From Ochotona curzoniae (Eukaryota > Chordata > Mammalia > Lagomorpha > Ochotonidae): a DNA stretch of 64,000 nucleotides. Position 1 is the first letter of the stretch; each line of letters begins with the position of its first letter. Location of the stretch: NCBI RefSeq assembly GCF_017591425.1, contig NW_024467120.1, forward strand, positions 12,428,746 to 12,492,745, written 5' to 3'. The position numbers and the translations under genes are program-made. The notes beneath the pieces are model-generated. The model saw only the letters and a list, made by a program, of their open reading frames with translations. It had not been told where the DNA came from and made no database searches. Positions 2,018 through 63,392 of this stretch are shown piece by piece.

Positions 2018-2977
2018 CTATGCCTTCATGTCTCTCTTTTTTGCAGAGTCATGGTGGATTCTCATCAGCTTCTTCAGGGCATCCTTCATGTCTTTATTCC
2101 TTAATGTGTAAATGAATGGGTTGAAACTTGGAGTCATAATGGTGTAAAAGAGGTTGAGGAATTTGCCCTGATCTTTGGAGGCACTGTTCCCTGGTTGCAA
2201 GTACATGTAAATAACAGTTCCATAGAAGATGGACACTACAGTGAGATGAGAGCCACAGGTGTTCACTGCTTTTCGCTGCCCAGCTTTTGACTTCATCCTC
2301 AGCACAGTTTTGGCAATATAACCATAGGATATGAGAATAAGGATCAAGGGTGTAAGGACAAAGACAATACCTAAAGCAAAAACAGACATTTCAACTGCTG
2401 TTGTGTCGACACAGGCTAACTTGACCATAGCTGGTAACTCACACAGGAAATGATCCAGAAGGTTGTTTCCACATCGAGGCAAATTCAGGGTGAGTGTACA
2501 TAATAATATGGAGTTGGCCAGACTAATGCTCCAAATCATGATGATCATCTTGACACAGAGATGTGGGTTTATGATGACAAGGTAGTGCAAGGGTTTGCAA
2601 ATAGCTGTGAAACGATCATAGGACATGACAGCCAGGAGCAGGCATTCGGTGGAGCCCAACCACATGTAGACATAGAGTTGAATGACACAGCCCACAAAGC
2701 TGATGGTCTTCTCAGGGCCCCACAAGTTAACCAGCATCTGAGGAACGACGCTGGTTGTGAAACACAAATCCAGAAAAGATAAATTCCTGAGGAAAAAATA
2801 CATTGGTGTATGGAGCTGGGACTCCAGGAGAGATGCAAGAATGATGGCTGTGTTACCCAGTAATGTAATTATGTAGAAGATGGCGACAACTCCTGACAGA
2901 ATCTTTTCCAAATTGGGATGATCAGAGAAGCCAAGTAGAATGAAATTATGGAGAGAACTGTGATTTCCTTGGTGCAT
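2018..2977 (-). CDS. OR2W1-like: Olfactory receptor, OR2W1-like (copy 1)
   Basis: An intact 319-residue odorant receptor: a class A GPCR of the olfactory cilia membrane that signals through Golf and adenylate cyclase type 3. Family marks in order are an N-terminal glycosylation site (NHSS, residue 5), GN in TM1, LHTPMYFFL in TM2, MSYDRFTAIC at the end of TM3, KAVNTCGSHLTVV in TM6 and IYTLRNKDMKDAL at the TM7/C-tail. The TM7 motif reads PSFNPFIY where the paralogue has PSLNPLIY. An upstream in-frame ATG at 3082 would add 35 residues, but these translate a pyrimidine-rich splice-acceptor tract, so I start at MHQGN, matching the usual OR2W1 N-terminus. The opening, WGPEKTISFVGC and YIAKTVLRMKSKA stretches resemble OR2W1. 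The stop lies inside a SINE target-site duplication. Ligand unknown. Confidence 0.93.
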   Translation of the reverse strand: MHQGNHSSLHNFILLGFSDHPNLEKILSGVVAIFYIITLLGNTAIILASLLESQLHTPMYFFLRNLSFLDLCFTTSVVPQMLVNLWGPEKTISFVGCVIQLYVYMWLGSTECLLLAVMSYDRFTAICKPLHYLVIINPHLCVKMIIMIWSISLANSILLCTLTLNLPRCGNNLLDHFLCELPAMVKLACVDTTAVEMSVFALGIVFVLTPLILILISYGYIAKTVLRMKSKAGQRKAVNTCGSHLTVVSIFYGTVIYMYLQPGNSASKDQGKFLNLFYTIMTPSFNPFIYTLRNKDMKDALKKLMRIHHDSAKKRDMKA

Positions 2978-2980
2978 AAT

Positions 2981-3110
2981 CCTGTGATGGCTAAATATTA
3001 GAGAGGGCAAGACAGTGAGGAGGAGCAGGCAGAGAAAGAGGAGAATGAAGAAAGAGAAAAGGGGGAAAAAGGAAGAAGTCAAAAAAGAGGAGGAAGAGAA
3101 GAAGAAATAA
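2981..3110 (-). promoter_or_regulatory. Predicted 3' splice site and polypyrimidine tract of OR copy 1
   Basis: On the coding strand a pyrimidine run of more than 100 bases (purine-rich on the plus strand, about 3000-3110) ends in CACAG, with AG at 2982-2983, five bases before the ATG. OR genes usually splice a non-coding exon onto one coding exon just upstream of the start codon, so this is the likely acceptor. A second TTTAG at about 2992 is an alternative. Confidence 0.65.
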
Positions 3111-6018
3111 TTTGTCAGTATGAACTATGTAAATAATATGATGGCATGCACAATAATCAAAAGGACAGAAATTACATTAATAATGGAAAAAAGGTAATGG
3201 ATAAATAGTACACTTTAAATGGAAAAAAGGCATAATTAAATATATTACATGCTAGTAGCCCCTTACTTACTATAGTTTTTTTAAATGGGAATGAGCTTAA
3301 TATTGCATTTAAAAAAATCAGGGGAGTTTGAGAATGTTTCTTTTAAACTCAGGTTCTCAATGATCCCACAAGCACATTTGCAAGGTTGGCATGGTCTGAT
3401 TCTAAAAGGATGCGACCACATAATGTCTTACAACAGCAGTTAGACGGCATGTTCTTTTAGGTGGTCAATGACTCAACTCCTACAATCTGAACACTTGACT
3501 AATGTCTTTCATACTTGGTTACTAGTGTCTTTGATTTTGCAGTTTGTCATCTAGAGATCTGGCACTTATCCTTGATTCTTTTTTGCTCCATCATCCTCAA
3601 TACCTTCTTAATCATCCAACTCGCAGTTTTGTGTGCAAAAAAGCATATGTTAACTATTGTCTCATTTTTAAGAGTTTCCAATGACAGTATCCTAACTTAA
3701 GCCAAGTCTCAGTAGTCTTCACCTCTTGTACTCAGTTCGCCTTCACACCATTACATTGTTCATTAAAACATAGTAACTACGTGCTTAAACCTTGCTAGAC
3801 ACATTTGAATCCATTCAAGGCATATCATGATTTTTTTGAGGTGTCCTAAAGGACCTTTATACTTTGGCTTCTGCATAGGATGCATTCTCTTCTCACAGAT
3901 CACTCAAGCGTTCTCACTACCAGCCGTCCAGTTGTTTATCGTGCCAAAGTACATCCTACTCTAAGTCCTCAGAATACTGCTTTTAGTTTATTGTTATTAT
4001 TTATTTATATCTCCTATCATTCTTTTGACCACTTTTAAATGACTCTTGCTAGCAGAAGGTTTCTATGAATGTTTCTATGAACCCTTCCTATGAACAATGG
4101 CCTATGCATTTTAAGAAGGCATACACGGTTTGTGCTGCTGTTTGCTCTATCTGTATAATCAAAAACATTTCCCCCAATATAACACTTGTGAACTAAAGTT
4201 AAGTCGTGCTAATCACAATGATTAAAATAATCACTTAATGATATTGGTTGTCTTTTTTTTTGGTGAAATTACCTGAATTGGACAGTAGGTTGGAGATGAG
4301 AGGGAAAGATAGTGATTTTATTTATGCAGAATCAAATAATATTTGTTCAGACTGGTGAAAATAATGAAACGATTGATTTCTTTTGAAAGGATGACTAGGC
4401 TAAGCATTACTCAGCAGTGTTATACAGATCCAGTTTGCCTAGAGTTTCATTTGCATCTCAGAGCTGTGGAAGAGATCATCAAAGGTACACCACCATATTT
4501 TTTCCTATTTTAGTATATGTGCTGCCAAAGCAAGCACTACTACCACATTTTCTATCATTTAATATAAAAAGATGACTTCTTAATGTCTGATGCTAAAATG
4601 GCACCCGGAAAGCTTCCATTCAATACTGTATTGCATATTGAAATTTTTTGTATTTGAGTACATATTTTTAGACTTAACTTTTATTTTAGAGATAATATTT
4701 GCCTATTTTGCGTTATAGTGAAAGACATAATGCCTCACTAAATAAATAGTTTAACAAAATAGCTGTTATAATAAATGTTTCTATTGTAGACACATATACA
4801 CTCAAAAATAATAGATAAAAATAGGAATAGTTTTTGGAGGTGATAGACTCATGGAATAGATTGCAGCTGTGTTTTCATATTTGCTTGTCTACATCCACAT
4901 TAAGTTATATACCTGTTCATTAAGCATATGGATTTTTGTCCAGAATTATGTTTTGTGTGTTCAAGAAATGCACCGAAAATACTTGACTGAAAAGTAAGAG
5001 TACATTTGAAGTTGGTGAGTTTCTATCTCAACTTCCTTTTGTGTAGATGTGACACAAAATTGGGCTTTTGATTATTATGCCATTTTAAATATGCTTAATA
5101 TTATGATGCAATTATTTAAAACATTAGCAATAATTCAAAAGTGGAAACATTTAGCAGTCAGCTGCCTAAAGTGGTTGAAATAGTTGCTTTGAGAGAGTCA
5201 CAGAGTAAATTCCTCAGATTTCACTGTTCAAAAATCATAATTTAGGCCTGAGTATTGACAATGATTAACAAAGAGAAATAACTCTGAAATGTGTGGCAAG
5301 CTGTCTCACGGCACTAGAGCTTTGTAAGATCTGACACGGAAAGAGTAATAGTATAATAATAATATAATAGTAAATGTATACTTGTGCTTAACTTCTGAAT
5401 AAAACAGTTAAAGCATAAAAGCAAAACTAAAAACTATTTTAAAATAAAAGACCATGCTATGCTATTTCCTTAATTCTTGTCATTATCACGACAAACACGT
5501 CAGATTAATTCAGCAAACAGTAACTTTTTTTCTGCTATTTTAAGGCTGGCACAAAAAATCTTCAGTAATTTGTTGCGCACAATAAAAGTTTTAGAAATGA
5601 CTCCTAATGAAACTGTTAGAAATGGGATGCTGGACTGTCTGACATTGTCTGTACCAGAAATTTCAGGTAATTATGACTCCTCATGAAGGAGGAGTAGCAA
5701 CATGGGGAAAATCGTTTATGGGGTAATTGTTTGTGGGGTAATCCCAATCTATATGAAACTGTATGGCAAAATTCAAAAATTCAAAATAAAAGTATAACAA
5801 AAAGAGTTTTAGAAATAGATCAAAAGTCTTGAAGTCCTTATTAGTTATCTAAACTTCTAGAATAAATTTTTGAATTCTTTATTTTCATCTTAATCTAGAT
5901 AGTCATTCTTGATTTCCGTTGGACTGAAATACTTGAAATGACAAAACAAGGAAGAGCTTAGAGTTTTCCTCTCATAAAAAGAGAAATTTAATCTTTTCTT
6001 CACAATGCAGGCAAAAAA
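3111..6018. other. Intergenic, diverged duplicate of 54990-57450
   Basis: AT-rich DNA with no convincing gene. It aligns with gaps to the same interval upstream of the second OR2W1-like gene, for example 'GGACCTTTATACTTTGGCTTCTGCATAGGAT' near 3852 against 55682. The non-coding first exon of the OR gene may lie here but I cannot place it. Confidence 0.6.
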
Positions 6019-15297: not shown

Positions 15298-16230
15298 TTA
15301 ACATTTTTTAATCCACAATAATCTCCTTACTGCACTTTTTACATCTTTGTTCCTTAGAGTGTAAATCAGAGGGTTTAAGCTGGGAGTGACAATTGTGTAA
15401 AAGAGAGTAAGAAATTTTCCTTCGTTTTGAGATGTTGTGTGCTGTGGTTTCATGTACATGTAGATGGCTGTTCCATAGAAGATAGTCACTACTGTGAGGT
15501 GGGAGCCACATGTGTTGAGGATCTTCTGCCACTTTGCTGTTGACTTGATCTTCATTACAGCTTGGGTGATGACTCCATATGAGAGGAGAATTAGCGATAG
15601 AGGGACCAGAAGAAATATCACTCCAAGAGCAAAGACAACAATCTCAATCACCTTTGAATAAACACAAGCCATCTTGATCAAGGCTGGCATCTCACAGAAA
15701 AAATTGTCCACTGCTCGGTGCCCACATCTTGGCAACTTTAAAGTCAAGGAACAAAGAATCAGTGCACTGCCCAGACCACCCAGCCAGGTAGTCAGCACCA
15801 TCCTGTGGCAGAGCTGAGGGTGCATGATGACTGTGTAGTGAAGGGGTTGGCAGACAGCGGCGTAGCGGTCATAGGCCATCACAGCCAAGAGAAGGCATTC
15901 TGTGGCTCCCAGGTCAAGGGCAAAGAAGAACTGGAGCACACAGCCTCCGTAGGTGATGGATTTCCTTGGTCCCCACAGATTGACTAGCATCTGGGGGATG
16001 ATGCTGGTTGTATAACAGAGGTCCAGAAAAGAGAGGTTGGATAAGAAGAAATACATGGGCGTGTGGAGCTGGGGGTCCAGGTATGAGACAAGGATGATGG
16101 TTGTGTTTCCTACCAGAGCCACAATGTAGAAGATGAAGACAATGGCAGAGATGATGGGTTCTAGTTGTGGTCGATCAGAAAAACCCAGCAGGATGAAGTC
16201 TGTGTCGGCACTCCCATTGTTTGTTTCCAT
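15298..16230 (-). CDS. Olfactory receptor, family 2 (copy A)
   Basis: An intact 310-residue odorant receptor with seven predicted membrane helices. Motifs in order: N-terminal glycosylation site (NNGS, residues 3-6), FILLGFSDRP, GN in TM1, LHTPMYFFLSNLSFLD in TM2, MAYDRYAAVCQPLHY at the end of TM3, cysteines in the second extracellular loop, ILNTCGSHLTVV in TM6, and PSLNPLIYTLRNKDVKSAV in TM7/C-tail. The start METNN fits the family length and lies eight bases after a strong splice acceptor; the upstream in-frame ATG at 16296 reads through the intron end. WGPRKSITYGGC and related phrases place it in OR family 2, near the OR2W/OR2J/OR2B group; I cannot fix the subfamily. Nearly identical to 31573-32520 over the middle 630 bases. 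Odorant unknown. Confidence 0.92.
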   Translation of the reverse strand: METNNGSADTDFILLGFSDRPQLEPIISAIVFIFYIVALVGNTTIILVSYLDPQLHTPMYFFLSNLSFLDLCYTTSIIPQMLVNLWGPRKSITYGGCVLQFFFALDLGATECLLLAVMAYDRYAAVCQPLHYTVIMHPQLCHRMVLTTWLGGLGSALILCSLTLKLPRCGHRAVDNFFCEMPALIKMACVYSKVIEIVVFALGVIFLLVPLSLILLSYGVITQAVMKIKSTAKWQKILNTCGSHLTVVTIFYGTAIYMYMKPQHTTSQNEGKFLTLFYTIVTPSLNPLIYTLRNKDVKSAVRRLLWIKKC

Positions 16231-16237
16231 TGATCTT

Positions 16238-16262
16238 TCTGAAATCAAAATAAATGTCAGCC
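16238..16262 (-). promoter_or_regulatory. Predicted 3' splice site of OR copy A
   Basis: The coding strand reads 'TTTATTTTGATTTCAG' and then eight bases to the ATG, with AG at 16239-16240. The tract is short but good. It supports METNN as the start codon and an upstream non-coding exon. Confidence 0.7.
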
Positions 16263-16299
16263 CTGGGTAGGAATCGAAATGTCTGAACTGTGTCATGAG

Positions 16300-17260
16300 A
16301 ATACATTAGCTATTTTGACTCTCTGCTTTCCACATTTGGGACATCTGATAGTATTACCCTCTGTTAATACAATGTTTTCATATTTGATTGTATCTAAATG
16401 ACTCTATCAGTAGCAGACTAAACCCAGTAACACTGAGTTACAATCATGGAAAAGGGTAAAATGTTATGTCACCACAAATGGTTCTACATGGTTTAATTAA
16501 GCAATAAAGGCATAAAGTTAATTATTACATTTTAAAATGGGCAGATACTTCAAGGGGTTAGTTTTTCTTAAAATTATGACCTACACGTCACTGATTATGA
16601 GAAATTCTTGTTTAGCCACCAAAGTGTTGAAGTTGACAAAGTTAAAAGAAATATTTTTTGACTAAGCTCAACAATTTTTTACAGAATTGCTTTCTGTATT
16701 TATATTCAAATGTCCACATTCTAACGTTTAGAATCATAATCATGACTGACACCAACTTCTGCTTTTCAGTCACTTCACATTGAGTGCATCTGTTTTATCA
16801 GCTTTGGTGATCCTTATGTCCCTCCCTGTCTTACTATGGGTGTGTTTTCCTCTCCTTATCTGCATTTGTGTTTGCTTACATCTACAGAAGCTATATGTTC
16901 TAAAAATGTCCTTAACGACTGACAATTACATCATTTAAGTGGCCCCACTGATTTGATGGAAAGTTGGAAATTGAACAGCCATTTCACAACCATTTGGTAA
17001 AACACATATGCAGTGACATTCGGTGTCAGCTTCTGTTCAGCTGGTCATTCAGTGGAATTAGCCAGGCAGTTATTCCAACAACAAACCATCATTAGACAAC
17101 TGGCAAGTTGAATTTCCCCAGGGAAATTTACCAATTATGTGAATAGTGCTTCTGAGTGCTTTGGAATCCTTTAATGTGAAAACATCACTTCACTACAAAC
17201 CTGAAGGAATAAAGACAAAGAATAAATCTTTAACAACTTCACTATTTATGATACTGTATC
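16300..17260. repeat. OR 5' flank, diverged duplicate of 32540-36070
   Basis: Segments such as 17030-17240 ('GGTCATTCAGTGGAATTA', 'GTGCTTTGGAATCC') match 35870-36060 in order, so the flank was duplicated with the gene. No gene is seen here beyond the possible first exon of the OR. Confidence 0.55.
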
Positions 17261-21998: not shown

Positions 21999-22097
21999 GA
22001 CAACATTATTGTCTACGGCCATACCACCCTGAACGCACCTGATCTCGGAAGCTAAGCAGGGTTGGGCCTGGTTAGTACTTGGATGGGAGACAACATT
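21999..22097 (+). pseudogene. RN5S pseudogene: Retroposed 5S rRNA fragment with target-site duplication
   Basis: 22011-22090 matches the 5S rRNA gene from its 5' end ('GTCTACGGCCATACCACCCTG') through the internal promoter region ('GGAAGCTAAGCAGGGTTGGGCCTGG') to 'TTAGTACTTGGATGGGAGA'. About 11 bases are missing in the middle, where 'GATCTCG' occurs twice in normal 5S, so the loss looks like slippage between the two copies. The last third is absent. 'GACAACATT' flanks it at 21999-22007 and 22089-22097, consistent with LINE-mediated insertion. Not functional 5S RNA. Confidence 0.9.
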
Positions 22098-31572: not shown

Positions 31573-32520
31573 TTAACATGATTTTGATGAGCATACTTTA
31601 CTCAGGAGTATTCTCTTCACTGCACTTTTTACATCTTTGTTTCTTAAAGTGTAAATCAGAGGGTTCAGACTGGGTGTGACAATTGTATAAAAAAGGGTGA
31701 AGAATTTTCCTTCATCTTGAGATGTCTGATTCTGTGGCTTCATGTACATATAAATTAATGTTCCATAAAACAGGGTAACTACTGTGAGGTGGGAGCCACA
31801 TGTATTTAGAAGCTTACGCCACCTGGCGGCTGACTTGATCTTCATTACAGCTTGGGTGATGACTCCATATGAGATGAGAATTAGAGATAGAGGGACCAGA
31901 AGAAATATCACTCCAAGAGCAAAGACAACAATCTCAATCACCTTTGAATAAACACAAGCCATCTTGATCAAGGCTGGCATCTCACAGAAAAAATTGTCCA
32001 CTGCTCGGTGCCCACATCTTGGCAACTTTAAAGTCAAGGAACAAAGAATCAGTGCACTGCCCAGACCACCCAACCAGGAAGATAGCACCATCCTGTGGCA
32101 GAGCTGAGGGTGCATGATGACTGTGTAGTGAAGGGGTTGGCAGACAGCGGCATAGCGGTCATAGGCCATCACAGCCAAGAGAAGGCATTCTGTGGCTCCC
32201 AGGTCAAGGGCAAAGAAGAACTGGAGCACACAGCCTCCGTAGGTGATGGATTTCCTTGGTCCCCACAGATTGACTAGCATCTGGGGGATGATGCTGGTTG
32301 TATAACAGAGGTCCAGAAAAGAGAGGTTGGATAAGAAGAAATACATGGGCGTGTGGAGCTGGGGGTCCAGGTATGAGACAAGGATGATGGTTGTGTTTCC
32401 TACCAGAGCCACAATGTAGAAGATGAAGACAATGGCAGAGATGATGGGTTCTAGTTGTGGTTGATCAGAAAATCCGAGTAGGGTGAAATCTGTTCCAGAA
32501 CTTCCATTGTTAGTTTCCAT
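31573..32520 (-). CDS. Olfactory receptor, family 2 (copy B)
   Basis: An intact 315-residue odorant receptor, tandem paralogue of the gene at 15298-16230. Motifs: NNGS glycosylation site, LHTPMYFFLSNLSFLD (TM2), MAYDRYAAVCQPLHY (end of TM3), LLNTCGSHLTVV (TM6), PSLNPLIYTLRNKDVKSAV (TM7/C-tail). Residues from about 17 to 225 are almost unchanged from copy A, while the first 16 residues, the TM6-TM7 region and the C-tail (five residues longer, ending SSKSC) differ clearly. The start METNN is eight bases past a strong splice acceptor; the upstream ATG at 32550 is inside the intron end. Like other ORs it would signal through Golf in olfactory cilia. The subfamily is not settled and the odorant is unknown. 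Confidence 0.92.
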   Translation of the reverse strand: METNNGSSGTDFTLLGFSDQPQLEPIISAIVFIFYIVALVGNTTIILVSYLDPQLHTPMYFFLSNLSFLDLCYTTSIIPQMLVNLWGPRKSITYGGCVLQFFFALDLGATECLLLAVMAYDRYAAVCQPLHYTVIMHPQLCHRMVLSSWLGGLGSALILCSLTLKLPRCGHRAVDNFFCEMPALIKMACVYSKVIEIVVFALGVIFLLVPLSLILISYGVITQAVMKIKSAARWRKLLNTCGSHLTVVTLFYGTLIYMYMKPQNQTSQDEGKFFTLFYTIVTPSLNPLIYTLRNKDVKSAVKRILLSKVCSSKSC

Positions 32521-32527
32521 TGATCTT

Positions 32528-32550
32528 TCTGAAAAGCTGTGAAACAACAT
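32528..32550 (-). promoter_or_regulatory. Predicted 3' splice site of OR copy B
   Basis: The coding strand reads 'TTGTTTCACAGCTTTTCAG' and then eight bases to ATG, with AG at 32529-32530. The eight bases after the acceptor are the same as in copy A, although the upstream intron has diverged. Confidence 0.7.
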
Positions 32551-32799
32551 AGTAGCAATATGTCATTATTTAGTGAAACTAAAAGTGTTTGAAGTTCGTC
32601 ATAAGTTTCTAAAACTCACTTTCTTGCATGTTTCTCCCCCATTTGGAATTTCTCTTTCAGCATTTCCTCAGGGTTGAGTCTTCTGCATACTTGCATATTT
32701 AACATCAAAGAAACTCTAAAATAATATCCTAAATCCAATCACACTTAAATGTAAATCATAGAAGTTTAGTATTTCATTTCATTAATGGTTTTATATAGT

Positions 32800-39814: not shown

Positions 39815-40905
39815 TTCAAAAATTAGCAAGACATTAAGTTTTTTTTTTAATATAAAAACTTAAAGCTGTTTGTATAGTCTCCCTGGAATTAATTTATATA
39901 TTGTTGGAGGGGAAGAAATCTAATTTAATTTTTAAGAGAATAACCAAATTCTGCTAAAATTTATTAAAATATTTTTCCTTACTTACCTTCTGATATTCTG
40001 TTTCATACAGGGGATATTCAAACAGCTCATGGAAAACAGGTATTATATAAAATTGCGTGAGCTCAACACAATTGCCATGTGGTTAAAGTCCTCTTCTTGC
40101 AATTGCTGGGATCCCATATGGGCACTGATTTGTGTCCTAGTTGCTCCACTTCCTACCCAGCTCCCCGCTTGTGGCCTGGCAAAGCAGTTGAGGACAGCCC
40201 AAAGCCTTGGATCCTGCATCCATGTGGGAGACCTGAAGAAGCTCCTGGCTTTTGGCTTTTGATTAGCTCAGCTCTGGCCGCTGTGGCCACTTGGGGAGTG
40301 AACCAGTGGATGAAACATTTTTCTATCTCTCCTTCATTCTGTAAATCTGACTTTGTAATAAAAATGCGAGAATGAGATGATGTTGACCATGAAGACTGTA
40401 GTGGCAGGTCCTCCACATCAGTTTGTGAGGGAAAAAAAAAGTTTATCTTGCTTGTTCAGCAATGAGCAACAGGAACAACAGCCAACACCAGGGACATCTC
40501 GGTTGCTTTGGTTCACACAACTCTGATAGGAAATCTAAAGCATGAACAAAACTTCTTGCTTTGTGGGTAGTGAATGCACTCAGATGAGCTGCAAACACAA
40601 GCAGCACTTCCAGTGGAGACTTTAACAAGTGGGATCCAGAGCCTGGAGCGTTTCTTCAAGGAAATGTAGAAGGTGATGGAACCAGTTGAAGGGTTTCACT
40701 AGAACAATCCTGAAGAAGAAGTGAAGCAAAGAGGTGAGGATGGTCCTGTCAAAGCCACAGAAGGAAAGCCAGAGTAAGAGCAATGATTATGACAGCACTA
40801 GTTGTTGATGGTGCTGAGGAAGGTATTTTATTGGTCATCATTCTGCAGTGTGGAGGAATGATGACATCTACTTATTAGGAGAGTGTTTTTAGAAAGTTAG
40901 AATGG
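39815..40905. mobile_element. Mariner-like relic (copy 2), split by a SINE; partner 58926-59990
   Basis: 39815-40055 matches 58926-59160 at about 78%; a SINE follows; then 40378-40905 matches 59462-59990 at about 98% by eye (block beta). The sharp change in identity inside one element is notable. No intact transposase frame is visible. Confidence 0.5.
40060..40372 (+). repeat. CSINE, plus orientation, inside the mariner-like relic
   Basis: 'CACAATTGCCATGTGGTTAAAGTCC' head, 'CCCATATGGGCACTGATTTGTG', tail 'CTTTGTAATAAAAATGCGAGAATGAG'. It is absent from the partner near 59160-59462, so it is younger than the duplication. Confidence 0.92.
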
Positions 40906-43015: not shown

Positions 43016-43272
43016 TGCTGCGACCAGCAGAGCCAGTAACATGGACATGGAGAGGGTCTGGGGATGAAGCATCGGCTGGGGACCAGTGATGGTGGAAGTC
43101 TCTGAGAAGTCTCTCTTTATTGCCCTTTTACTTCTCCTCATATACCCCCATCCTCATTTAGCAGGATATTGGATACAGATGAGTCCAATTAGTCTAGGTG
43201 TTTTTAGCCACAAGCCCAGTTCCTGTTCCTGCCCAGGCTAACGAGCACTAATCAACTCCTTAGCCCACAACA
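43016..43272 (-). repeat. 3' LTR of provirus A
   Basis: 257 bp, TGTTGTGG...CA on the minus strand. It has an 11-bp and a roughly 27-bp segment that the 5' LTR lacks. An AATAAA signal (minus strand, near 43112) lies 30-40 bases downstream of a weak TATA-like 'GTATATGAGGAG'. Confidence 0.92.
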
Positions 43273-43274
43273 GG

Positions 43275-43286
43275 TTCCCCTTTTTT
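43275..43286 (-). other. Polypurine tract of provirus A
   Basis: AAAAAAGGGGAA on the minus strand, two bases before the 3' LTR start; the plus-strand DNA primer site of reverse transcription. Confidence 0.88.
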
Positions 43287-43669
43287 GTTTTAAAGCAGAC
43301 TTGAATGTGCCTGTCTTAGGTTGTGGACTCTCAGGTTATCAGCCTTATCTGTCATTGGGAATCTCTGTAGCATGACTGAGCCCCTGTCTTAGGTGAATAA
43401 GATGGACTAGGCACTGACCAATCACTGGCTGCCTGCTGCAGTTGCACAAACCGTACTTGTGGAGGCTAATAACCCTGTTCCATGGCTAGGAGTATTTTTA
43501 GCTCAGTAGCAATGAGCAGACAACAGCTCCCGGGCTTGGGAAAAATTTTGCACTTGCATAGGTATTACATACATAAAGACATGATGATGGGGAACAAAAG
43601 GCTCTGACCATATCCCTCAGCATCTACTGCTCCTCTGCCAACAAATCAACCTGCTGTTAACATGTAAAC

Positions 43670-43905
43670 ATGCCCACCCACATGTGTTCATTAATACAGT
43701 TCTGCTGTTCCATAGCTCAGGCAGTCAGTTCTGCAAGCTTGTTCATGGTTTCAGCGGTAGCTGTAGGGTGTCCTAGGGTCCTTGCTGCTGTGGTGGTGGC
43801 TGCTGACGTCAGGGCAATACTGGCTACGATGGCCACTGTTATGTCAAAGTCTCTTTTACACCTTATCAGGCCAAAAGAGGCCTCTCTGTCAGTCCCAACA
43901 GGCAC
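43670..43905 (-). pseudogene. env transmembrane-subunit remnant of provirus A
   Basis: A minus-strand frame with a hydrophobic, alanine/threonine-rich segment followed by a polar heptad-like stretch. This is the expected order of fusion peptide and first coiled coil in a retroviral TM subunit, and it sits between the integrase end and the polypurine tract. The surface subunit is missing. The assignment rests on position and pattern. Confidence 0.55.
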
Positions 43906-44067
43906 AAGCAGGATTCCGGGCAGCCATATGACACCAGCTGTATCACCATTGCCATTTCAACATGCTGTTAGGGTACAGCTGACCTCAGTGCAATTCACTT
44001 CAGAGACATTTTTTGTCCCGTCAATCTTCCAACTCAAATGCCATCACCATGGCCAGTACCCGAGCTT

Positions 44068-44691
44068 TCACAAGACTGCAGCAGGAGCTTGCCAGACAAG
44101 CCTCTCAGGAATCCACCGTGGACCGTTTTTGCTTTCTGGAAAAACACAAACTGATCCTCGCCCCCAAATGAGGATGGGATCTGGGCCTTGCCACTGACCA
44201 GTCAAGGGATCCTTCCAATCACATAACTCCTCTGCTTCTGAGACAGATTCCAATGACGATCTGCAGCAGACCGTCCTTCAGCATCCAATGTTAGAAAATT
44301 TAAGATAAGTAATACGAGGTTCAAATGATCTTGGGGAGTGCTATACTCCCCCTTTTTTGCTTTAATAAGACAATCCTTAATAGTATGGTTGGCACGTTCC
44401 ACAATACCTTGTCCTAGAGGATTATAAGTGCCTGTAATTGTATATGGTGGGAAGCAGCAAAACCACAAAACTTAACTGCTAATATAGCAGGTGCCATTAT
44501 CAGTTTTAATAACTTTTGGAGTTCCCAATATGGAAAAACATGCATTGCAATGGGCCAGAGCATGCCTGACTTGTTCCCCTGTCTGAGGAGTAGCTAGAAC
44601 AAATCCAGAGCAAGTGTTGACAGTAACATGCACATACTTTTTTGTCCCAAACTCTGGGATGTGTCTCACGTCCACCTGGAAACAATCTCAA
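44068..44691 (-). pseudogene. pol integrase remnant of provirus A
   Basis: The integrase core and C-terminal domain are readable on the minus strand. The first catalytic aspartate lies in a DVRHIPEFG motif near 44670, the second in KTDNG near 44490, and the glutamate in GQGIVERANH near 44400, giving the D,D-35-E pattern. An in-frame stop (44472-44474) separates the second and third catalytic residues. A frameshift near 44230 leads into the C-terminal WGRG...WIPERLV region, a class II retrovirus hallmark. It cannot make a working enzyme. Confidence 0.88.
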
Positions 44692-44783
44692 TATAATTCA
44701 ATTAACCTGATTAACTGTCTCTACAAAATGGGAAATTAATCTCCTTGCATTCTTGAGGCCTTGTAAGAATACCAAGGGAAGCC

Positions 44784-45476
44784 TTAGAATTTGAAACTTG
44801 AATTCTTGGATGCCTTTTGAAAGATGGATAAAAACATCTGGGCTGTGGAAATTTTGGGGGGTTTAATACAATTCTGAAAAAGTTGAAATTCTAAATTATT
44901 AAATGGAGAAATAAGTTGTATTTTGTCTGGGGCTGTAGCTAATCTTGCCTCAACTGAAGGGAGAGATGCTGAAGTTGCCCCTATAAATCTATCACGGCTG
45001 AGCCCAGATTTAATGGTGCTGATGGCACAGGAGGTGCAGAGGGCTCTGTGCCTGGCCAAAAGAGACTTTTGCTCAGCACACGCTTTGTGGGCATATCCTC
45101 TATGGCTGAAGGGTCCTTGGAAGACTCACTTTCATTCTCTCGCCCTCCCTTCTCCTCAGAAGAGGACCCCAAATCTACTTTGTGCAATTTCTCCAGACTT
45201 TGTCTGGTCTGGGGTTCCTTTTCCTTTTTTTACCCTGGTTTGGGGTCCCTTTCCCCTTCTTATGAATAATTTTTCAAGGAATGGTTGCACCTCAGCTTGA
45301 GGGGATGACAAAGTATCTTTTACTAAGTGCCAGAGGAAAAAGGTGGCTACAAGGAGAACTTACCACAGGGATATGTCGCAGACAGTTTCAACGAACTTCT
45401 GCGAGGCCTTAAGCTTAGTGTCGGTGCCTTGTGACTGCAACAGATCTCGGATTCCCTCAATCATCTGCATTTTCAT
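44784..45476 (-). pseudogene. gag remnant of provirus A (matrix and proline-rich region)
   Basis: From 45476 a short 38-codon frame resembles the N-terminal helical part of a betaretrovirus matrix protein and ends at a stop at 45360. Further down, 44981-45187 carries two PSAP late-domain motifs (PSAP binds TSG101 of the ESCRT-I budding complex) after an acidic, serine-rich stretch. Reading then continues in another frame to about 44784. Capsid and nucleocapsid are deleted, and sequence passes directly to integrase. Confidence 0.65.
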
Positions 45477-45740
45477 GAGTTCTTGCCCTATGAGAAATTT
45501 TACTTATGCCCCTGCAAAATTTTTAAACTTGCCTCTGGATTTCTGGGGTCCCTCAGATTGTCCCTCGTGCCCCAGGATGGGGAGAAGGTCTGGGGATGAA
45601 ATTAATTATGCCTTCCAGAGTTCCGGGGTCCCTCAGATTGTCCCTTATGCCCTGGGACAGGGAGAGGGTCTGGGGATGAAACCAATTAAGCCCATGCAAA
45701 ATTTTTAAGTTCTAAACCTTCGTAGGTCCAGAGATCCCTC
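45360..45740 (-). repeat. Leader of provirus A with two 80-bp repeats
   Basis: Units start near 45545 and 45625 (plus strand 'GGGGTCCCTCAGATTGTCCC...GGTCTGGGGATGAA'). Each unit resembles the U5-to-leader junction of the provirus itself but without the LTR end and primer-binding site. A partial further unit is split by the nested LTR. Confidence 0.75.
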
Positions 45741-45742
45741 AG
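45737..45742. other. Target-site duplication of nested LTR B
   Basis: CCTCAG, repeated exactly at 47031-47036. Joining the outer flanks gives back a leader phrase seen intact in the 80-bp repeats ('CCCTCAGATTGTCCC'). Confidence 0.92.
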
Positions 45743-47030
45743 TGCCGGGGACCAGCTCCAGCTGACTGAGAGCTTGCAAAGATGCGTGGATCGGCGAGAT
45801 GGTAGGAAGAGATAAGACATGGACCACTATGGCTTGATGCTCATAATGGACAACTCAGCAAAGTTGCCTTCTTTATTTATACAGAAATCTTCACAAGCTT
45901 TTGCACAACATTCAATTGTTTCATTTTTCATTACATCGTGGTTATGAAAATGCAAGAAGCAATCCTAAAAAATATTTTTCTATTTCAAAGAAAACATTCT
46001 TAACCAACCATTACTCATTGAAATCTGCAATCACCTGGCTGAAGCCAGGAACTCCACGGTTGGCAGCGCATGCAGTTACATAGTGACAAGTAGTTTACTT
46101 ATACTCAAAATCTATTTTTACTAAACACAAACTAATATTGATTAAAATATTAAGAATACAGAATTAAAAGATCATAAATGAAAGGATTTTATAAACGCAT
46201 ATAACATAGATTCTTTGCTAAATCTTATAATCAAATCATGCATTAATTACGGTCACCTTCACCTAGTGCTGATTCAATTGTTTTTTATTCTTTTGTTAAA
46301 GTGCAGTGAAAGGGATCAAGGCAGCTCAGCCAATCTACAAACAGAGGGCCTTTACAAGAAACTTTCTTTCATCTATATAAACTGTTTTCTTTCCCTAAAT
46401 ATAAGTGCCAATATAAGATAAAGATTTTAAACCATTTTGAGGGGGTTCACATTTATTTCCTTATAAAAGATGCCCCATATACTTTTGCTTCCCGTGGTAA
46501 GAAACTAAAATGCGTCATGTCATGTGTTGTAACAGTTCGAGGTGCATGGCAAACAAACTCTTTGTACCTCCATGATTGCCATCTGTTGCAAGATATTATT
46601 AAGCCATTTCTTAAGGAAAACATTACTTATACTAGGGTAAACTTCAGGACAAAAGTGGGCACATAACAGGATATTTGAAAATATAGTGGGCGGCTCAATT
46701 GTACTATTGTATACTTTTAGCTGTGTATCATAGCCTTACGTTACTATAGGTGTTTTTATCATAACATGATTGATCAATTTGAGGTGTCATACCAGTTACA
46801 GGAATCACTTCACATTAGCAGAAAAACAACAATAACACCCTCAGAAGAATTCTATGAAACATCAGAGAGGTGATTGAGTTCCATACAATGGGGTGAGGCA
46901 GCAATGAGGTGACCAGAGACATTCTGCCGGGCCTTGCCTCGCAGCTAGAAACTCCTCGAAGCCTTGCTAACTGAGGAGCGGTGCTCATTACACACCCATG
47001 CCATCTGACCCAACTGCATGGCTCCCCACA
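45743..47030 (-). mobile_element. Solo LTR B (1288 bp) nested in provirus A
   Basis: On the minus strand it runs TGTGGGGAGCC...GGTCCCCGGCA, with inverted ends and TG/CA termini. The 3' third has 'CTGTATAAATAAAG' (near 45870-45884), a combined TATA-like and AATAAA signal followed by about 130 bases of R/U5. The 6-bp CCTCAG duplication indicates a class II integrase. Its length is like the long LTRs of mouse mammary tumour virus-type viruses, but I find no recognisable accessory reading frame. The sequence is unlike the LTR of provirus A, so it is a different family. An internal TG start at 46080 ('TGTAACTGCATGCGC') could mark a shorter LTR, but no duplication supports that. Confidence 0.82.
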
Positions 47031-47036
47031 CCTCAG
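47031..47036. other. Target-site duplication of nested LTR B (other side)
   Basis: CCTCAG, partner of 45737-45742. Confidence 0.92.
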
Positions 47037-47053
47037 ATTGTCCCTCGTACCAT

Positions 47054-47071
47054 ACCCCACGTAGGGCGCCA
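47054..47071 (-). other. Primer-binding site of provirus A (tRNA-Lys1,2 type)
   Basis: The minus strand reads TGGCGCCCTACGTGGGGT, two bases after the LTR. The complement of the 3' end of tRNA-Lys1,2 is TGGCGCCCAACGTGGGGC, so 16 of 18 bases match. This primer is typical of several betaretroviruses. Confidence 0.9.
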
Positions 47072-47073
47072 TA

Positions 47074-47303
47074 TGCTCTGACCAGCAGAGACAGTAACGT
47101 GGACACGAACAGGATCTGGGGATGAAGCACTGACTGCAGACCAGTGATGGTGGAAGTCTCTCTTTATTGCCCTTTTACTTCTCCTTATATACTCTCACCC
47201 CCCCATCCTCATTTAGCAGGATATTGGATACAGATGAGTCCAATTAGTCATTTCTGTTCCTGCCCAGGCTAACGAGCACTAATCAATTCCTTAGTCCACA
47301 ACA
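47074..47303 (-). repeat. 5' LTR of provirus A
   Basis: 230 bp, TGTTGTGG...GAGCA on the minus strand. It has 'GTATATAAGG' (TATA, near 47196) and AATAAAG (near 47163), closely spaced as in compact betaretrovirus LTRs. No promoter activity can be judged. Confidence 0.93.
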
Positions 47304-47309: not shown

Positions 47310-47908
47310 AAGGACGCACTGTTCTCGGATGGTGAGGCCAGAGACAGCAGAAAAGGAGAATTTCAGGGCATTTCGGAGAGGACAGTGGTGGTGAGTGGAC
47401 CCATGTGCCTACACGGGGGCCCTCCCTGGGGGCTGAGACCAGGACCCTCCCCATTTATTTCCCGGCTCACACTTTGCTTAGGAGTCTCTGCTGGACTCTC
47501 CTCATATCATCACTTCTCGTTAAATCCAGGGAAAGATACATTAGAAAGTGACTCGGTCACTATTGCACGCACAGGTCAACTCTGAAGGGTTGGCTTCATT
47601 ATTCCCACGGAGCCAGCGGGCACGGTGCTGTCTTCAGAGAGACCAGAGCAAATCAACACCACCTTTCTGTTTTGTTTGTGTTGATCCACAAGGGACTGTG
47701 GATGGACCCTGCCCAAAGGGCGTACCCGGGAGAAAGGGGACAGCGATCAGTACCTCCAGCCCTGACAGTCTGGATGGAGATGGAGCGTCTCAGGCAGGAA
47801 GACCCGAGCACCGTCGGCCACGAAGGGAGCGCGGAGGCGGCGGAGGAGCGGCTCGGCCCCTTGGAAGGACCCCGGCCCCGCGGGGTTCTGGACAGCGAGG
47901 TCTCACTG

Positions 47909-47916
47909 TGACGTCA
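47909..47916. promoter_or_regulatory. CRE palindrome (TGACGTCA), copy 1
   Basis: A perfect CREB/ATF consensus octamer in the CpG-rich core, preserved at 62365-62372. Confidence 0.6.
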
Positions 47917-47948
47917 CCGCTGCGGCCGCGCCTGGAGCGCCCTGGCCA

Positions 47949-47965
47949 CAGCGCCCTCTGGCGGC
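47949..47965 (-). promoter_or_regulatory. CTCF-like site, copy 1
   Basis: The minus strand reads GCCGCCAGAGGGCGCTG, close to the CTCF core CCACCAGGGGGCGCTA. Preserved at 62405-62421. Confidence 0.6.
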
Positions 47966-48282
47966 GCTGCGAGAAGCGGCGGTGGGCACTAGGGTGCTGC
48001 TGCTGGATGGGTGTACAAAGGGATGGGAGCCCCATTTCAGAATCTGGGGATCATTCAGGGAGAAGGAAACCCACAAGAAAACGCTGGGGTTCTGCAAGTG
48101 GGGGCTGATTGATTAATAAAAAGGATGTGTAAGTTACATGGATCATCTGTTGATAGCAAGAAATGCACGATGGCAAAAAGTTCATCTGTTGGTATTTCAA
48201 TTGACTGACAAGGACAGAAGACATGACCCATGTGGCTAATGTGAAACTGCACTTAAATCTTACATCGTTTAACTATCTTTGA

Positions 48283-48610
48283 TAATTTATCTTTAGTAGC
48301 TACTCTTAATGACTGCTGTATTTTAAGACAGTAACATTCTGATTTCTCTGGAATCTGCCACTCCAGAGCACATAATTTTATCAACTTTGACAATAAGGAG
48401 TGGATTAAAAAAACTGCTGCTTTTTGTCAATGACAACTGATTCTCATTTTCCTTCAGAAGGATTTATTTATTTATGGCGCTATATTTGTTGAACCAACTG
48501 GAAAGACTAGCAATAATTACATCATTCGGATCAGGTTTTGTTATAGCAGTTTATGAAGACTTTAGTTTTCTCAACTTTTAGGAAAGTATTTTAAAAGTTC
48601 ATGGTTTGGG
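48283..48610. other. Intergenic, unclassified
   Basis: No gene; AT-rich. Homology to the second module copy has ended. Confidence 0.35.
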
Positions 48611-53881: not shown

Positions 53882-54838
53882 CTATTTTTCTGTGTCTTCC
53901 TGTCTGTCTTTTTGGTGAACTCTCATCAGCTTCTTCAGGGCATCCTTCATGTCTTTATTCCTTAATGTGTAAATGAGGGGGTTCAGACTTGGAGTGATGA
54001 TGGTGTAAAAGAGGGTGAGGAATTTGCCCTGGTCTTTGGAGGCACTGTTCCCTGGTTGCAAGTACATGTAAATAATAGTTCCATAAAAGATGGACACTAC
54101 AGTGAGATGAGAGCCACAGGTGTTCACTGCTTTTCGCTGCCCAGCTTTTGACTTCATCCTCAGCACAGTTTTGGCAATGTAACCATAGGAGATGAGAATA
54201 AGCGTCAAGGGTGTAAGGACAATGACAATACCTAAAGCAAAAACAGACATTTCAACTGCTGTTGTGTCGACACAGGCTAACTTGACCATAGCTGGTAACT
54301 CACACAGGAAATTATCGAGAAGGTTGTTTCCACATCGAGGCAAATTCAGGGTGAGTGTACATAATAATATGGAGTTGGCCAGACTAATGCTCCAAACCAT
54401 GAGGATCATCTTGACACAGAGATGTGGGTTCATGATGACAAGGTAGTGCAAGGGTTTGCAAATAGCTGTGAAACGATCATAGGACATGACAGCCAGGAGC
54501 AGGCATTCAATGCAGCCCAACCACATGCAGACATAGAGTTGAATGACACAGCCCACAAAGCTGATGGTCTTCTCAGGGCCCCACAAGTTAACCAGCATCT
54601 GAGGAACAATGCTAGTTGTGAAACACAAATCCAGAAAAGATAAATTCCTGAGGAAAAAATACATTGGTGTTTGGAGCTGGGACTCCAGGAGAGATGCAAG
54701 AATGATGGCTGTGTTACCCAGTAATGTAATTAAGTAGAAGATGGCGACAACTCCTGACAGAATCTTTTCCAAATTGGGATGATCAGAGAAGCCAAGTAGA
54801 ATGAAATTATGGAGAGAACTGTGATTTCCTTGGTGCAT
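53882..54838 (-). CDS. OR2W1-like: Olfactory receptor, OR2W1-like (copy 2)
   Basis: An intact 318-residue odorant receptor, paralogue of 2018-2977 with about 95% identity. Marks: NHSS glycosylation site, GN in TM1, LQTPMYFFL in TM2 (histidine of the usual LHTPMYFF replaced by glutamine), MSYDRFTAIC, KAVNTCGSHLTVV and PSLNPLIYTLRNKDMKDAL. The C-tail (ending QEDTEK) differs from copy 1 because no SINE inserted at its end. I start at MHQGN, where the codons match OR2W1 orthologues; an in-frame ATG 11 codons upstream (54871) lies in the splice-acceptor tract. It is expected in olfactory neuron cilia with Golf coupling. Intact motifs suggest function; ligand unknown. Confidence 0.93.
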   Translation of the reverse strand: MHQGNHSSLHNFILLGFSDHPNLEKILSGVVAIFYLITLLGNTAIILASLLESQLQTPMYFFLRNLSFLDLCFTTSIVPQMLVNLWGPEKTISFVGCVIQLYVCMWLGCIECLLLAVMSYDRFTAICKPLHYLVIMNPHLCVKMILMVWSISLANSILLCTLTLNLPRCGNNLLDNFLCELPAMVKLACVDTTAVEMSVFALGIVIVLTPLTLILISYGYIAKTVLRMKSKAGQRKAVNTCGSHLTVVSIFYGTIIYMYLQPGNSASKDQGKFLTLFYTIITPSLNPLIYTLRNKDMKDALKKLMRVHQKDRQEDTEK

Positions 54839-54841
54839 AAT

Positions 54842-54985
54842 CCTGTGATGGCTAAATATTAGAGAAGGCAAGACAGTGAGGAGGAGCAGGCAGAGAAAGT
54901 GAATGATGAAGTTAGGGAAAAAAGGGAAAAGGAAGAAAAAGAGAAAGAAGAAGTCAAAAAGAGGAGGGAGAGAAGAAGAAATAAC
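54842..54985 (-). promoter_or_regulatory. Predicted 3' splice site and polypyrimidine tract of OR copy 2
   Basis: The same arrangement as copy 1: a long pyrimidine run on the coding strand (plus-strand purines 54870-54985) and CACAG with AG at 54843-54844, five bases before ATG. The tract differs in length from copy 1. Confidence 0.65.
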
Positions 54986-54989
54986 TTGT

Positions 54990-58925: not shown

Positions 58926-60170
58926 TTGCAAAAATAGCAAGACATCGAATTTGTTTTTTCTAAAAGTCTAAAGTTTATGTATAGTCTACCTGGAGTTAAT
59001 TTGTGTAATGTTGGAGGGTACGAAATCCAATTAAATTTTTAAAAGGGTAACAAAATGCTGCTATAATTTATTAAAAATTTTTTTCCTTACTGACCTTCTA
59101 GTATTCTGCTTCATACAGGGGATCTTCCAACAATTCACGGAAAATATGTTTATAAAAAACTGTGCATGTAGTTATGTATTTCAAAATGTTTTTGTACCAA
59201 AGTAAATTCACACAAAGCTTAATAAATGTATCTGAATAGGATTTAGTTTAAGGCATTAGGAAGAATATGATATTAGTTTGAAAAGGAGCCCAAATAGAAA
59301 CGGATCCTGAAAAAATAGAAGCAAGGACAAATATCAAATCTGTGGTGAAGCTTATGTGGGAAACTGGTGAACTCACCAAAATTTTACATCAGATTTTAGG
59401 GAAACAAAAAGTTCTAAAGAAACCAATGTTTTGCAAATGAAAACTCACTTTAAGAGGGACGTGATGAGCAATGTTGACCATGAAGACTGTAGTGGCAGGT
59501 CCTCCACATCAGTTTGTGAGGGAAAAAAAATGTTTATCTTGCTTGTTCAGCAATGAGCAACAGGAACAACAGCCAACACGAGGGACATCTCGGTTGCTTT
59601 GGTTCACACAACTCTGATAGGAAATCTAAAGCATGGACAAAACCTTCTGCTTTGTGGGTATTGAATGCACTCAGATGAGCTGCAAACACAAGCAGCACTT
59701 CCAGTGGAGACTTTAACAAGTGGGATCCAGAGCCTGGAGCGTTTCTTCAAGGAAATGTAGAAGGTGATGGAACCAGTTGAAGGGTTTCACTAGAACAATC
59801 CTGAAGAAGAAGTGAAGCAAAGAGGTGAGGATGGTCCTGTCAAAGCCACAGAAGGAAAGCCAAAGTAAGAGCAATGGTTATGACAGCACTAGTTGTTGAT
59901 GGTGCTGAGGAAGGTATTTTATTGGTCATCATTCTGCAGTGTGGAGGAATGATGACATCTACTTACTAGGAGAGTTTTTAGAAAGTTAGCCAGAGTGGCA
60001 GTAAATAAAGAGCTCTAGCTTGGAAAACTTCACTGAGAGTCCTTATCCACCATGACAATGTTCCTGTTGTATTTTCCTTATCCAACAAGGCCAGTTTGTG
60101 AACAGTTTCAATGAGAAAATCATTAAACATTCAGCTTCCAATGTTACTTGGTCACCTTATGGATTCTTTC
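58926..60170. mobile_element. Mariner-like relic (copy 3)
   Basis: Matches 39815-40905 without the SINE. Beyond the shared part, the plus strand near 60030-60060 can be read as a broken 'LIHHDN'-type peptide, the second catalytic aspartate region of mariner transposases, followed by more degenerate sequence. Heavily mutated. The transposon class is a tentative call. Confidence 0.45.
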
Positions 60171-61790: not shown

Positions 61791-62364
61791 CGGGCGAACT
61801 GTTCTCAGAGCTGGTGAGGCCAAAGACAGCAGAAAGGGAGGGTTTCATGGCATTTCGGAGAGGGCAGTGGAGGGCAGTGCTGACATGGGGGCCCTCCCTG
61901 GGGGCTGAGACCTGGACCCTCGCATTCCGGCCACAGTCCCCATTTGCTGGTCCAGTGCTTTGCTCATGGTTCTCAGCTGGAAGCTTCTTGTAGTTCCCGG
62001 AAAAGGTGCACTGGAAAGAGACTCGGTCACTATTGCAAGCATAGGCCAGCTCTGAAGGGTTGGTGGTCCGGCTTCGGCTTCGCTTGTTTCCGCGGGTCCA
62101 AGGGGCACGGTGCTGCCTTCAGAGAGACCAGAGCAAATCAACACCACATTTCTGTTTTGTTTGTGTTGATCCACAAGGGACTGTGGATGGCGATCAGCGT
62201 CGTCATGGCCTCTCGCCCTGACAGTCTGGATGGAGATGGAGCGTCTCAGGCAGGAAGACCCGAGCACCGTCGGCCACGAAGGGAGCGCGGAGGCGGCGGA
62301 GGAGCGGCTCGGCCCCTTGGAAGGACCCCGGCCCCGCGGGGTTCTGGACAGCGAGTTCTCACTG

Positions 62365-62372
62365 TGACGTCA
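62365..62372. promoter_or_regulatory. CRE palindrome (TGACGTCA), copy 2
   Basis: Same octamer and surroundings as 47909-47916. Confidence 0.6.
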
Positions 62373-62404
62373 CCGCTGCGGCCGCGCCTGGAGCGGCCTG
62401 GCCA

Positions 62405-62421
62405 CAGCGCCCTCTGGCGGC
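62405..62421 (-). promoter_or_regulatory. CTCF-like site, copy 2
   Basis: Same 17 bases as 47949-47965. Confidence 0.6.
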
Positions 62422-62648
62422 GCTGCGAGAAGCGGCGGTGGGCACTAGGGTGCTGCTGCTGGATGGGTGTACAAAGGGATGGGAGCCCCATTTCAGAATC
62501 TGGGGATCATTCAGGGAGAAGGAAACCCACAAGAAAACGCTGGGGTTCTGTTGGGGCACTGACCATTTCCTGCCCTGTGATTGGCCCTTTGCCCTGATTG
62601 GTGTGCCTTGGTTATCTTTAAGCTGATTGGACAAGTTTGACAGATAAG

Positions 62649-62649
<1 letters not shown>

Positions 62650-62681
<32 letters not shown>

Positions 62682-62691
62682 CTTGGCGGGG
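62650..62691. repeat. G homopolymer, 42 bases
   Basis: An uninterrupted G run inside LTR C. The length may be affected by assembly. Confidence 0.9.
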
Positions 62692-62703
62692 GAGGGGCTG
62701 GAG

Positions 62704-62768
62704 CATAACGGTCATAACGGTCACAATGGATATAACGGACACAACGGATATAACGGACACAACGGAAG
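62704..62768 (+). repeat. Short tandem array in LTR C
   Basis: 'CATAACGGTCATAACGGTCACAATGG' followed by 'ATATAACGGACACAACGG' twice. The units share AACGG every nine bases, resembling a cluster of Myb-type AACGG sites. Confidence 0.8.
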
Positions 62769-63392
62769 ATCGGAATAAAGCACCTTGGAGACTCAAGTGT
62801 CAGGTGATTTCTTCCGCGGGACGGGAGGACCCCCGATAGGTTCTGTAAGTAGGCGCTGATTGATTAATAAAAAGGATGTGTAAGTTACATGGATCATCTC
62901 TTGATAGCAAGAAATGCACGGTGGCGAAAAGTTCATCTGTTGGTATTTCAATTGACTGACCAGGACAGATGACATGACCCACGTGGCTACTGTGAAACTG
63001 CACTTAAATCTTACATCATTTAACTATCTTTGACTTTTTTTCTTTTTTAAAAGTTTGTAAATATTACTATTTATAAGCAAATAGTAAAAATAGAATACAT
63101 ATCCGTAAACGGATGGAAAATTCTAATAAGGTATGTGAATAAACAAAAAGTACACTGTAGAAAATCAGAGGAGAAAGTAATCAAAGTTGAAAGATTGACC
63201 CTGCTATAAATGACAAAAATCTAAATCGGAAACATTAAAGTTTTGTTTTTTGGCTTGATTGTTTTTCTGCTACATTCCAACTGCAGATGCCGGGAGCAAA
63301 ACTTCCATATTTTTTGAAACCTCTACAGCAGAGTCCACTGCAGGAAGGAGATGATAGTGTATACAGACACTGAATTATTTAATTTTTTTCCA

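What the first reader, a model, noticed from the sequence alone, without database searches (positions are those of the whole stretch)
47770..48095. CpG-rich module copied almost without change: candidate promoter/insulator in the OR cluster
47770-48090 and 62224-62550 differ at about two sites, although CpG-rich DNA normally decays fast and the adjoining 150 bases differ by about 5%. The unchanged core holds a perfect CRE palindrome and a CTCF-like site about 40 bases apart. Strong CTCF sites and methylation-free islands are unusual within OR arrays. Function may be to bound or drive a domain. It may also be a recently spread element.
Basis: partly seen in the sequence, partly recalled or inferred. 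Interest (0 to 1): 0.75.

Follow-up and report, generated by a model that had tools for sequence, protein, structure and literature searches.

The report
CpG island homogenised by gene conversion
A 330-base CpG-rich, promoter-like stretch beside odour-receptor genes of a pika occurs in three neighbouring copies, two of them nearly identical, most likely because the copies keep overwriting each other (gene conversion), as other parts of this gene array also seem to do.

Summary
In detail: 47759-48087 and 62215-62543 differ at 2 of 329 sites, while the right flank differs at 15 of 200 and the left is broken by an indel of about 29 bases. The genome is almost certainly plateau pika; the neighbouring receptors are OR2W1 copies. 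A search of the 2.08-Gb assembly finds the core at three loci within 75 kb of one contig, plus the same three on a contig that looks like the other haplotype: not a dispersed mobile element. The core meets CpG-island criteria and has a perfect CRE and, in each copy, the best CTCF-matrix score of 114 kb. But near-identity is not special to it: among 509 overlapping 300-base paralogue windows (median divergence 16%) it ties for 7th, behind windows of neighbouring OR genes and just ahead of a CpG-poor 521-base tract. Tract ends differ between copy pairs and coincide with structural differences, one a solo LTR. Best reading: an old CpG island of the OR2W1 tandem unit, homogenised by patchy interlocus gene conversion. 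A promoter or insulator role is possible but untested; identity between copies is no evidence for it.

The parts
47759..48087 (.). CpG-island core, copy 1 (c1)
   Evidence: 2 of 329 differences to copy 2; 28 CpG, o/e 0.77
62215..62543 (.). CpG-island core, copy 2 (c2)
47909..47916 (.). perfect CRE palindrome TGACGTCA, copy 1
   Evidence: intact in 6 of 6 aligned copies/alleles
62365..62372 (.). perfect CRE palindrome, copy 2
47949..47967 (-). CTCF-like site, 17.1 bits with a matrix recalled from memory; the three cores hold the three best sites of 114 kb
   Evidence: intact in 6 of 6
62405..62423 (-). CTCF-like site, copy 2
62549..62838 (+). solo LTR in copy 2 with 5-base target duplication GGTTC (62544-62548 and 62839-62843); the near-identical tract ends here
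   Evidence: dispersed family: 742 candidates, 40 scored, 40 matches of which two are this site and its allele
43016..47303 (-). endogenous retroviral insertion left of copy 1: LTRs 43016-43272 and 47074-47303 (77% alike), 6-base target duplication GGCTAC; not seen at copy 2
40380..40900 (.). second near-identical tract, 97.7% identical to 59471-59989, CpG-poor (o/e 0.09)
59471..59989 (.). partner of the tract 40380-40900
2018..3124 (-). OR2W1-type receptor A1 (open frame, stop to stop)
53882..54988 (-). OR2W1-type receptor A2 (open frame, stop to stop)
15298..16305 (-). second-type OR B1 (open frame, stop to stop)
31573..32562 (-). second-type OR B2 (open frame, stop to stop), with a 309-base run identical to B1 between diverged ends

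Best explanation
The module is a small, old CpG island (promoter-like: CRE plus CTCF-like site) that belongs to the tandem unit 'island + OR2W1 gene' in a pika OR array; in the 114 kb looked at, one island lies 3' of each of three OR2W1 copies (about 4.3, 5.8 and 13.9 kb away). The units diverged long ago, but the islands, like parts of the OR genes and another non-coding tract, are kept alike by repeated short interlocus gene conversion. Shown: copy number, mosaic identity, tract ends at structural differences. Strongly inferred: conversion. Weaker inference: the island stayed CpG-rich because it is unmethylated in the germ line. Unshown: any promoter, enhancer or CTCF activity.
For: Mosaic identity: c1/c2 differ at 2 of 329 (haplotype P) or 5 of 329 (haplotype H) in the core against 15 or 12 of 200 right and 8 or 7 of 64 left; c0/c1 differ at 12 of 321 (P) or 14 of 321 (H) in 47715-48050 against 77-78 of 185 and 25-26 of 61 in the flanks. 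Ends differ by pair: c0/c1 is alike from about 47715 to 48050, c1/c2 from 47759 to about 48092; the c1/c2 ends fall at an indel of about 29 bases and at the solo LTR. Paralogues in the core are about as alike as alleles (c1P/c1H 3 of 329; c2P/c2H 2 of 292 in 47759-48050). Shared polymorphism: at 47742 c0 and c1 both carry A on P and G on H; at 47808 c1 has G on P and A on H, and c0 has the same in the first unit of its 37-base tandem duplication. Array-wide patchiness: 0 of 300 between B0 and B1, 1 of 300 B1/B2, 3 of 300 A2/A3, median 16% over 509 overlapping windows; B1/B2 identical for 309 bases with crowded differences beyond it. Local, not dispersed. Of the 28 CpGs of c1P, 28 are kept in c1H, 28 in c2P, 27 in c2H, and 24 of the 25 alignable in each c0 allele.
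Against: Only two haplotypes of one assembly were seen. Of the allelic sites in 47715-48050 (3 in c0, 4 in c1, 2 in c2) only two are shared between loci; 47742 is a CpG transition, which can recur, and the 47808 sharing depends on which tandem unit of c0 is compared. On haplotype H the c1/c2 difference is 5, not 2. Purifying selection acting together with conversion cannot be excluded, and it would explain why a CpG-rich state survived at all. The A2/A3 and B1/B2 patches lie in coding sequence, where selection also raises identity (B0, a pseudogene, and the 40380-40900 tract are the cleaner controls). c0 differs from c1 by a 37-base duplication and a 15-base gap between CRE and CTCF site.
Confidence: 0.8

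Rival explanations
1. Functional constraint: the island is a promoter or CTCF-bound boundary whose sequence is held by purifying selection in each copy.
For: CRE and the CTCF-like site are intact in 6 of 6 copies/alleles; best CTCF scores in 114 kb; CpGs kept; one island per OR2W1 copy in the stretch looked at.
Against: Non-motif spacers are as unchanged as the motifs. That the 12 c0/c1 differences miss 27 motif bases of 321 is not unexpected by chance (own estimate, about one in three). A CpG-poor non-coding tract and a pseudogene in the same array show similar near-identity.
Confidence: 0.15
2. Recently spread mobile element carrying a CRE/CTCF promoter.
For: The array is full of repeats; an ERV and a solo LTR lie at the edges of the two copies.
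Against: Genome search found 3 loci and their second-haplotype counterparts only (8 matches, 6 of 6 candidates scored; the tool warns that very common words are skipped); homology continues on both sides with graded identity and no shared element ends.
Confidence: 0.02
3. Very recent extra duplication of only the island, not conversion.
For: Sharp jump of identity at the tract ends.
Against: c1 and c2 lie at the same place within colinear, more diverged units, so a copy-in would have had to replace the resident homologue, which amounts to gene conversion.
Confidence: 0.03

Closest known systems
Interlocus (non-allelic) gene conversion in tandem gene families, including OR clusters (the OR case is recalled; no paper was read on it)
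   Same: Short near-identical patches between diverged tandem copies, ends varying by pair, some shared polymorphism between paralogues.
   Different: One tract sits in a non-coding CpG island rather than in a coding exon.
Orphan (intergenic) CpG islands
   Same: CpG o/e 0.77-0.87, GC 67%, no protein family match in the 6 frames tried around the copies, away from OR coding starts.
   Different: Multiplied with an OR tandem array, a kind of array said to lack CpG islands in its promoters (PMC10463633, passages seen).
Clustered protocadherin promoters (CTCF site in CpG-island promoters; recalled)
   Same: CTCF-like site within a CpG island repeated along a gene array.
   Different: Here the island lies kilobases 3' of the OR genes, not at their starts; no expression or binding data.

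Membership tests
Interlocus gene conversion tract | Local identity between paralogues far above the flanks | tested here: met
   2 of 329 against 15 of 200 and 8 of 64
Interlocus gene conversion tract | Tract ends that vary between copy pairs | tested here: met
   c0/c1 about 47715-48050, c1/c2 47759 to about 48092
Interlocus gene conversion tract | Polymorphism shared between paralogues | tested here: inconclusive
   two sites, one a CpG, one dependent on the alignment; two haplotypes only
Interlocus gene conversion tract | Paralogues group within species rather than by position across species | not testable with these tools
   no other lagomorph genome at hand
CpG island | at least 200 bases, GC over 50%, CpG o/e over 0.6 | tested here: met
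   329 bases, 67%, 0.77
CpG island | unmethylated, open chromatin | not testable with these tools
   no epigenomic data
CTCF insulator | good match to the CTCF matrix | tested here: met
   17.1 of at most 26.1 bits with a recalled matrix; best score in 300 letter shuffles of the core was 16.8
CTCF insulator | CTCF binding and loop or boundary | not testable with these tools
   no ChIP or contact data
Mobile element | dispersed copies | tested here: not met
   three loci plus second-haplotype counterparts, one array

The most novel reading that the evidence does not exclude
A germ-line-open CpG island with CRE and CTCF site, multiplied one per OR2W1 gene, acts both as a domain boundary or non-coding promoter inside an OR array and as a seed of recombination that drives conversion of the array, in contrast to the picture of OR arrays as CpG-island-free and recombination-poor.
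Probability: 0.1. Interest if true: 0.6.

Novelty: new member of a known kind. Interest (0 to 1): 0.3.

Why it matters
It warns against reading paralogue identity as constraint: in a tandem array near-identity can be set by gene conversion. If the islands prove open in the germ line, the array would be a small test case for whether CpG islands seed recombination inside otherwise CpG-poor OR arrays.

Tried and rejected
Mobile element: rejected by the genome search. Coding sequence: long open frames cross the core, but 6 of 6 frames tried from the three loci had no Pfam match at E 0.1, and the 37-base duplication in c0 shifts the frame. A protein search with the copy-1 frame found 1 protein among 477 candidates, a 206-aa translation from a 1096-base contig marked 'lgn'. 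Its letters join a c2-like left flank to a c1-like right end without the LTR: either a copy-2 allele or orthologue with an empty LTR site, or a chimeric short-read contig; not used as evidence. No tRNA was found in the window, and the one Rfam match at the gathering score lies elsewhere. Literature: searches listed no paper that I recognised as about this element; I saw listings and abstract starts only, except passages of PMC10463633, passages of PMC5519329 (0 occurrences of pika, Ochotona, rabbit, lagomorph) and the outline with abstract of PMC4804638 (not used in the argument). Linkage to the MHC was to be tested with Pfam PF00129, but the search did not complete, so MHC linkage of OR2W1 remains recalled knowledge. 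Whether PRDM9 is intact in this genome was not tested. Limits: of the alignments found I kept 33 (400 bases or longer, plus four named shorter ones); 9 of the 33 compare A-type with B-type genes and so raise the median; windows overlap (step 50).

Full report
What was checked. The two stretches were aligned. Between 47759-48087 and 62215-62543 there are 2 differences in 329 bases. To the right the copies differ at 15 of 200 bases (48095-48294). To the left comes an indel of about 29 bases, then 8 differences in 64 bases.

Where it lies. The window is C1378:12428746-12492745 of a 2.08-Gb assembly. A receptor of the window (53885-54838, minus) is 93% identical to a protein named olfactory receptor 2W1 of Ochotona curzoniae, reported on a contig of 12,673,868 bases, the length of C1378; so the animal is almost certainly plateau pika. 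That OR2W1 belongs to the MHC-linked OR cluster is recalled; my test of it did not complete.

Copies in the genome. A search with 47770-48095 scored 6 of 6 candidates and gave 8 matches, which fall at three loci on C1378 (two in the window, one 12 kb to its left, split in two pieces) and at three colinear loci on contig C1197. C1197 looks like the other haplotype: in the blocks over 500 bases that one search kept, it aligns colinearly to the 114 kb around the window at 98.6-99.7%. The tool warns that very common words are skipped, but no dispersed family was seen. I call the three loci c0, c1, c2 and the haplotypes P (C1378) and H (C1197).

Structure of the array. Self-comparison of 114 kb shows three OR2W1-type genes A1, A2, A3 (A3 at about 66805-67764, outside the window, open frame) and three of a second type, B0, B1, B2; B0 (-7616 to -6571) has no ATG-started frame of 200 codons and stops in all three frames of its strand. 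Each of the three A genes has one core on its 3' side, at about 13.9 (A1), 5.8 (A2) and 4.3 kb (A3). I did not look for further OR2W1 copies beyond the 114 kb. Copy 1 is separated from its left flank by an endogenous retrovirus on the minus strand, LTRs 43016-43272 and 47074-47303, with a 6-base target duplication; copy 2 carries a 290-base solo LTR at 62549-62838 with a 5-base target duplication. The solo LTR belongs to a dispersed family: 742 candidates, of which 40 were scored and listed, two of them this site and its allele, the others 78-84% alike. These insertions explain where the matching stretches break off.

Why gene conversion. (1) c1 and c2 differ in the core at 2 of 329 on P and 5 of 329 on H, about as much as the alleles of c1 (3 of 329) or c2 (2 of 292), although the median of 509 paralogue windows is 16% and the neighbouring unit stretches are 82-84% identical. 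(2) c0 and c1 differ at 12 of 321 (P; 14 on H) in 47715-48050 but at 77 of 185 and 25 of 61 beside it. (3) The tracts of the two pairs have different ends, and the c1/c2 tract runs from one structural difference (the indel) to another (the solo LTR). (4) At 47742 both c0 and c1 have A on P and G on H, and at 47808 c1H has an A that among the others only c0H has, in the first unit of a 37-base duplication. The first is a CpG change, the second depends on the alignment, and the remaining allelic sites of the tract (one or two per locus) are not shared; so this is support, not proof. (5) The same patchiness is seen elsewhere in the array: 0 of 300 between the B0 pseudogene and B1, 1 of 300 between B1 and B2, 3 of 300 between A2 and A3, a 309-base identical run in B1/B2 with dense differences beyond, and a 521-base CpG-poor tract, 40380-40900 against 59471-59989, 97.7% identical; a genome search with it gave 15 matches, four of them these two loci on both haplotypes and eleven short ones at 68-90%, as an old repeat fragment would. 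In the ranking of 300-base windows the core pair (2 of 300) stands 8th in the list, level with the 7th; the seven listed ahead are overlapping windows of the B genes. The 33 alignments behind that ranking were chosen by length plus four by name, and 9 of them compare A-type with B-type genes, which raises the median.

What the island may do. The core meets the usual CpG-island criteria and has a CRE and a CTCF-like site with 32 bases between them; c0 has 15 bases less. A perfect CRE occurs once more in the 114 kb, at 43804, and CpG-rich windows occur elsewhere too, mostly 12-29 kb left of the window. CpGs are nearly all kept in the six sequences. As at least one copy must have stayed CpG-rich while the flanks diverged, low germ-line methylation, selection or GC-biased conversion is needed (inference). 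PMC10463633 (passages) describes OR-type arrays as AT-biased, without CpG islands in promoters and poor in recombination, and says that CpG islands serve as recombination hotspots where PRDM9 is absent; an island in such an array that also shows conversion is thus a mild exception worth testing. But the near-identical patches in CpG-poor sequence suggest that the island is not needed for conversion here.

Verdict. Real, local, old CpG island; its near-perfect copying is best explained by array-wide gene conversion; regulatory role open. Not a mobile element.

Noticed in passing
43016-47303 (-): Endogenous retroviral insertion with 77%-alike LTRs and 6-base target duplication, next to copy 1; described only.
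   Followed up: partly
62549-62838: Solo LTR of a dispersed LTR family with a long G run; some family members lie in pairs 2.6-3.4 kb apart in the genome, as LTRs of short elements would.
   Followed up: partly
40380-40900 and 59471-59989: CpG-poor non-coding tract 97.7% identical between two units; a probable second conversion tract.
   Followed up: yes
15298-16305 and 31573-32562: OR genes B1 and B2 share a 309-base identical run between diverged ends; the B0 pseudogene left of the window is identical to B1 over at least 300 bases.
   Followed up: partly
L010:7400-7660: Tandem repeat of about 37 bases (read by eye) just left of the third core copy, in CpG-rich DNA; more CpG-rich stretches lie 12-29 kb left of the window.
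   Followed up: no
22011-22117 (+): 5S rRNA-like match (Rfam RF00001, 48.1 bits), probably a pseudogene.
   Followed up: no
P0121 (protein from a 1096-base contig): Translation joins a copy-2-like left flank to an LTR-free right end: empty-site allele or orthologue, or assembly chimera.
   Followed up: partly
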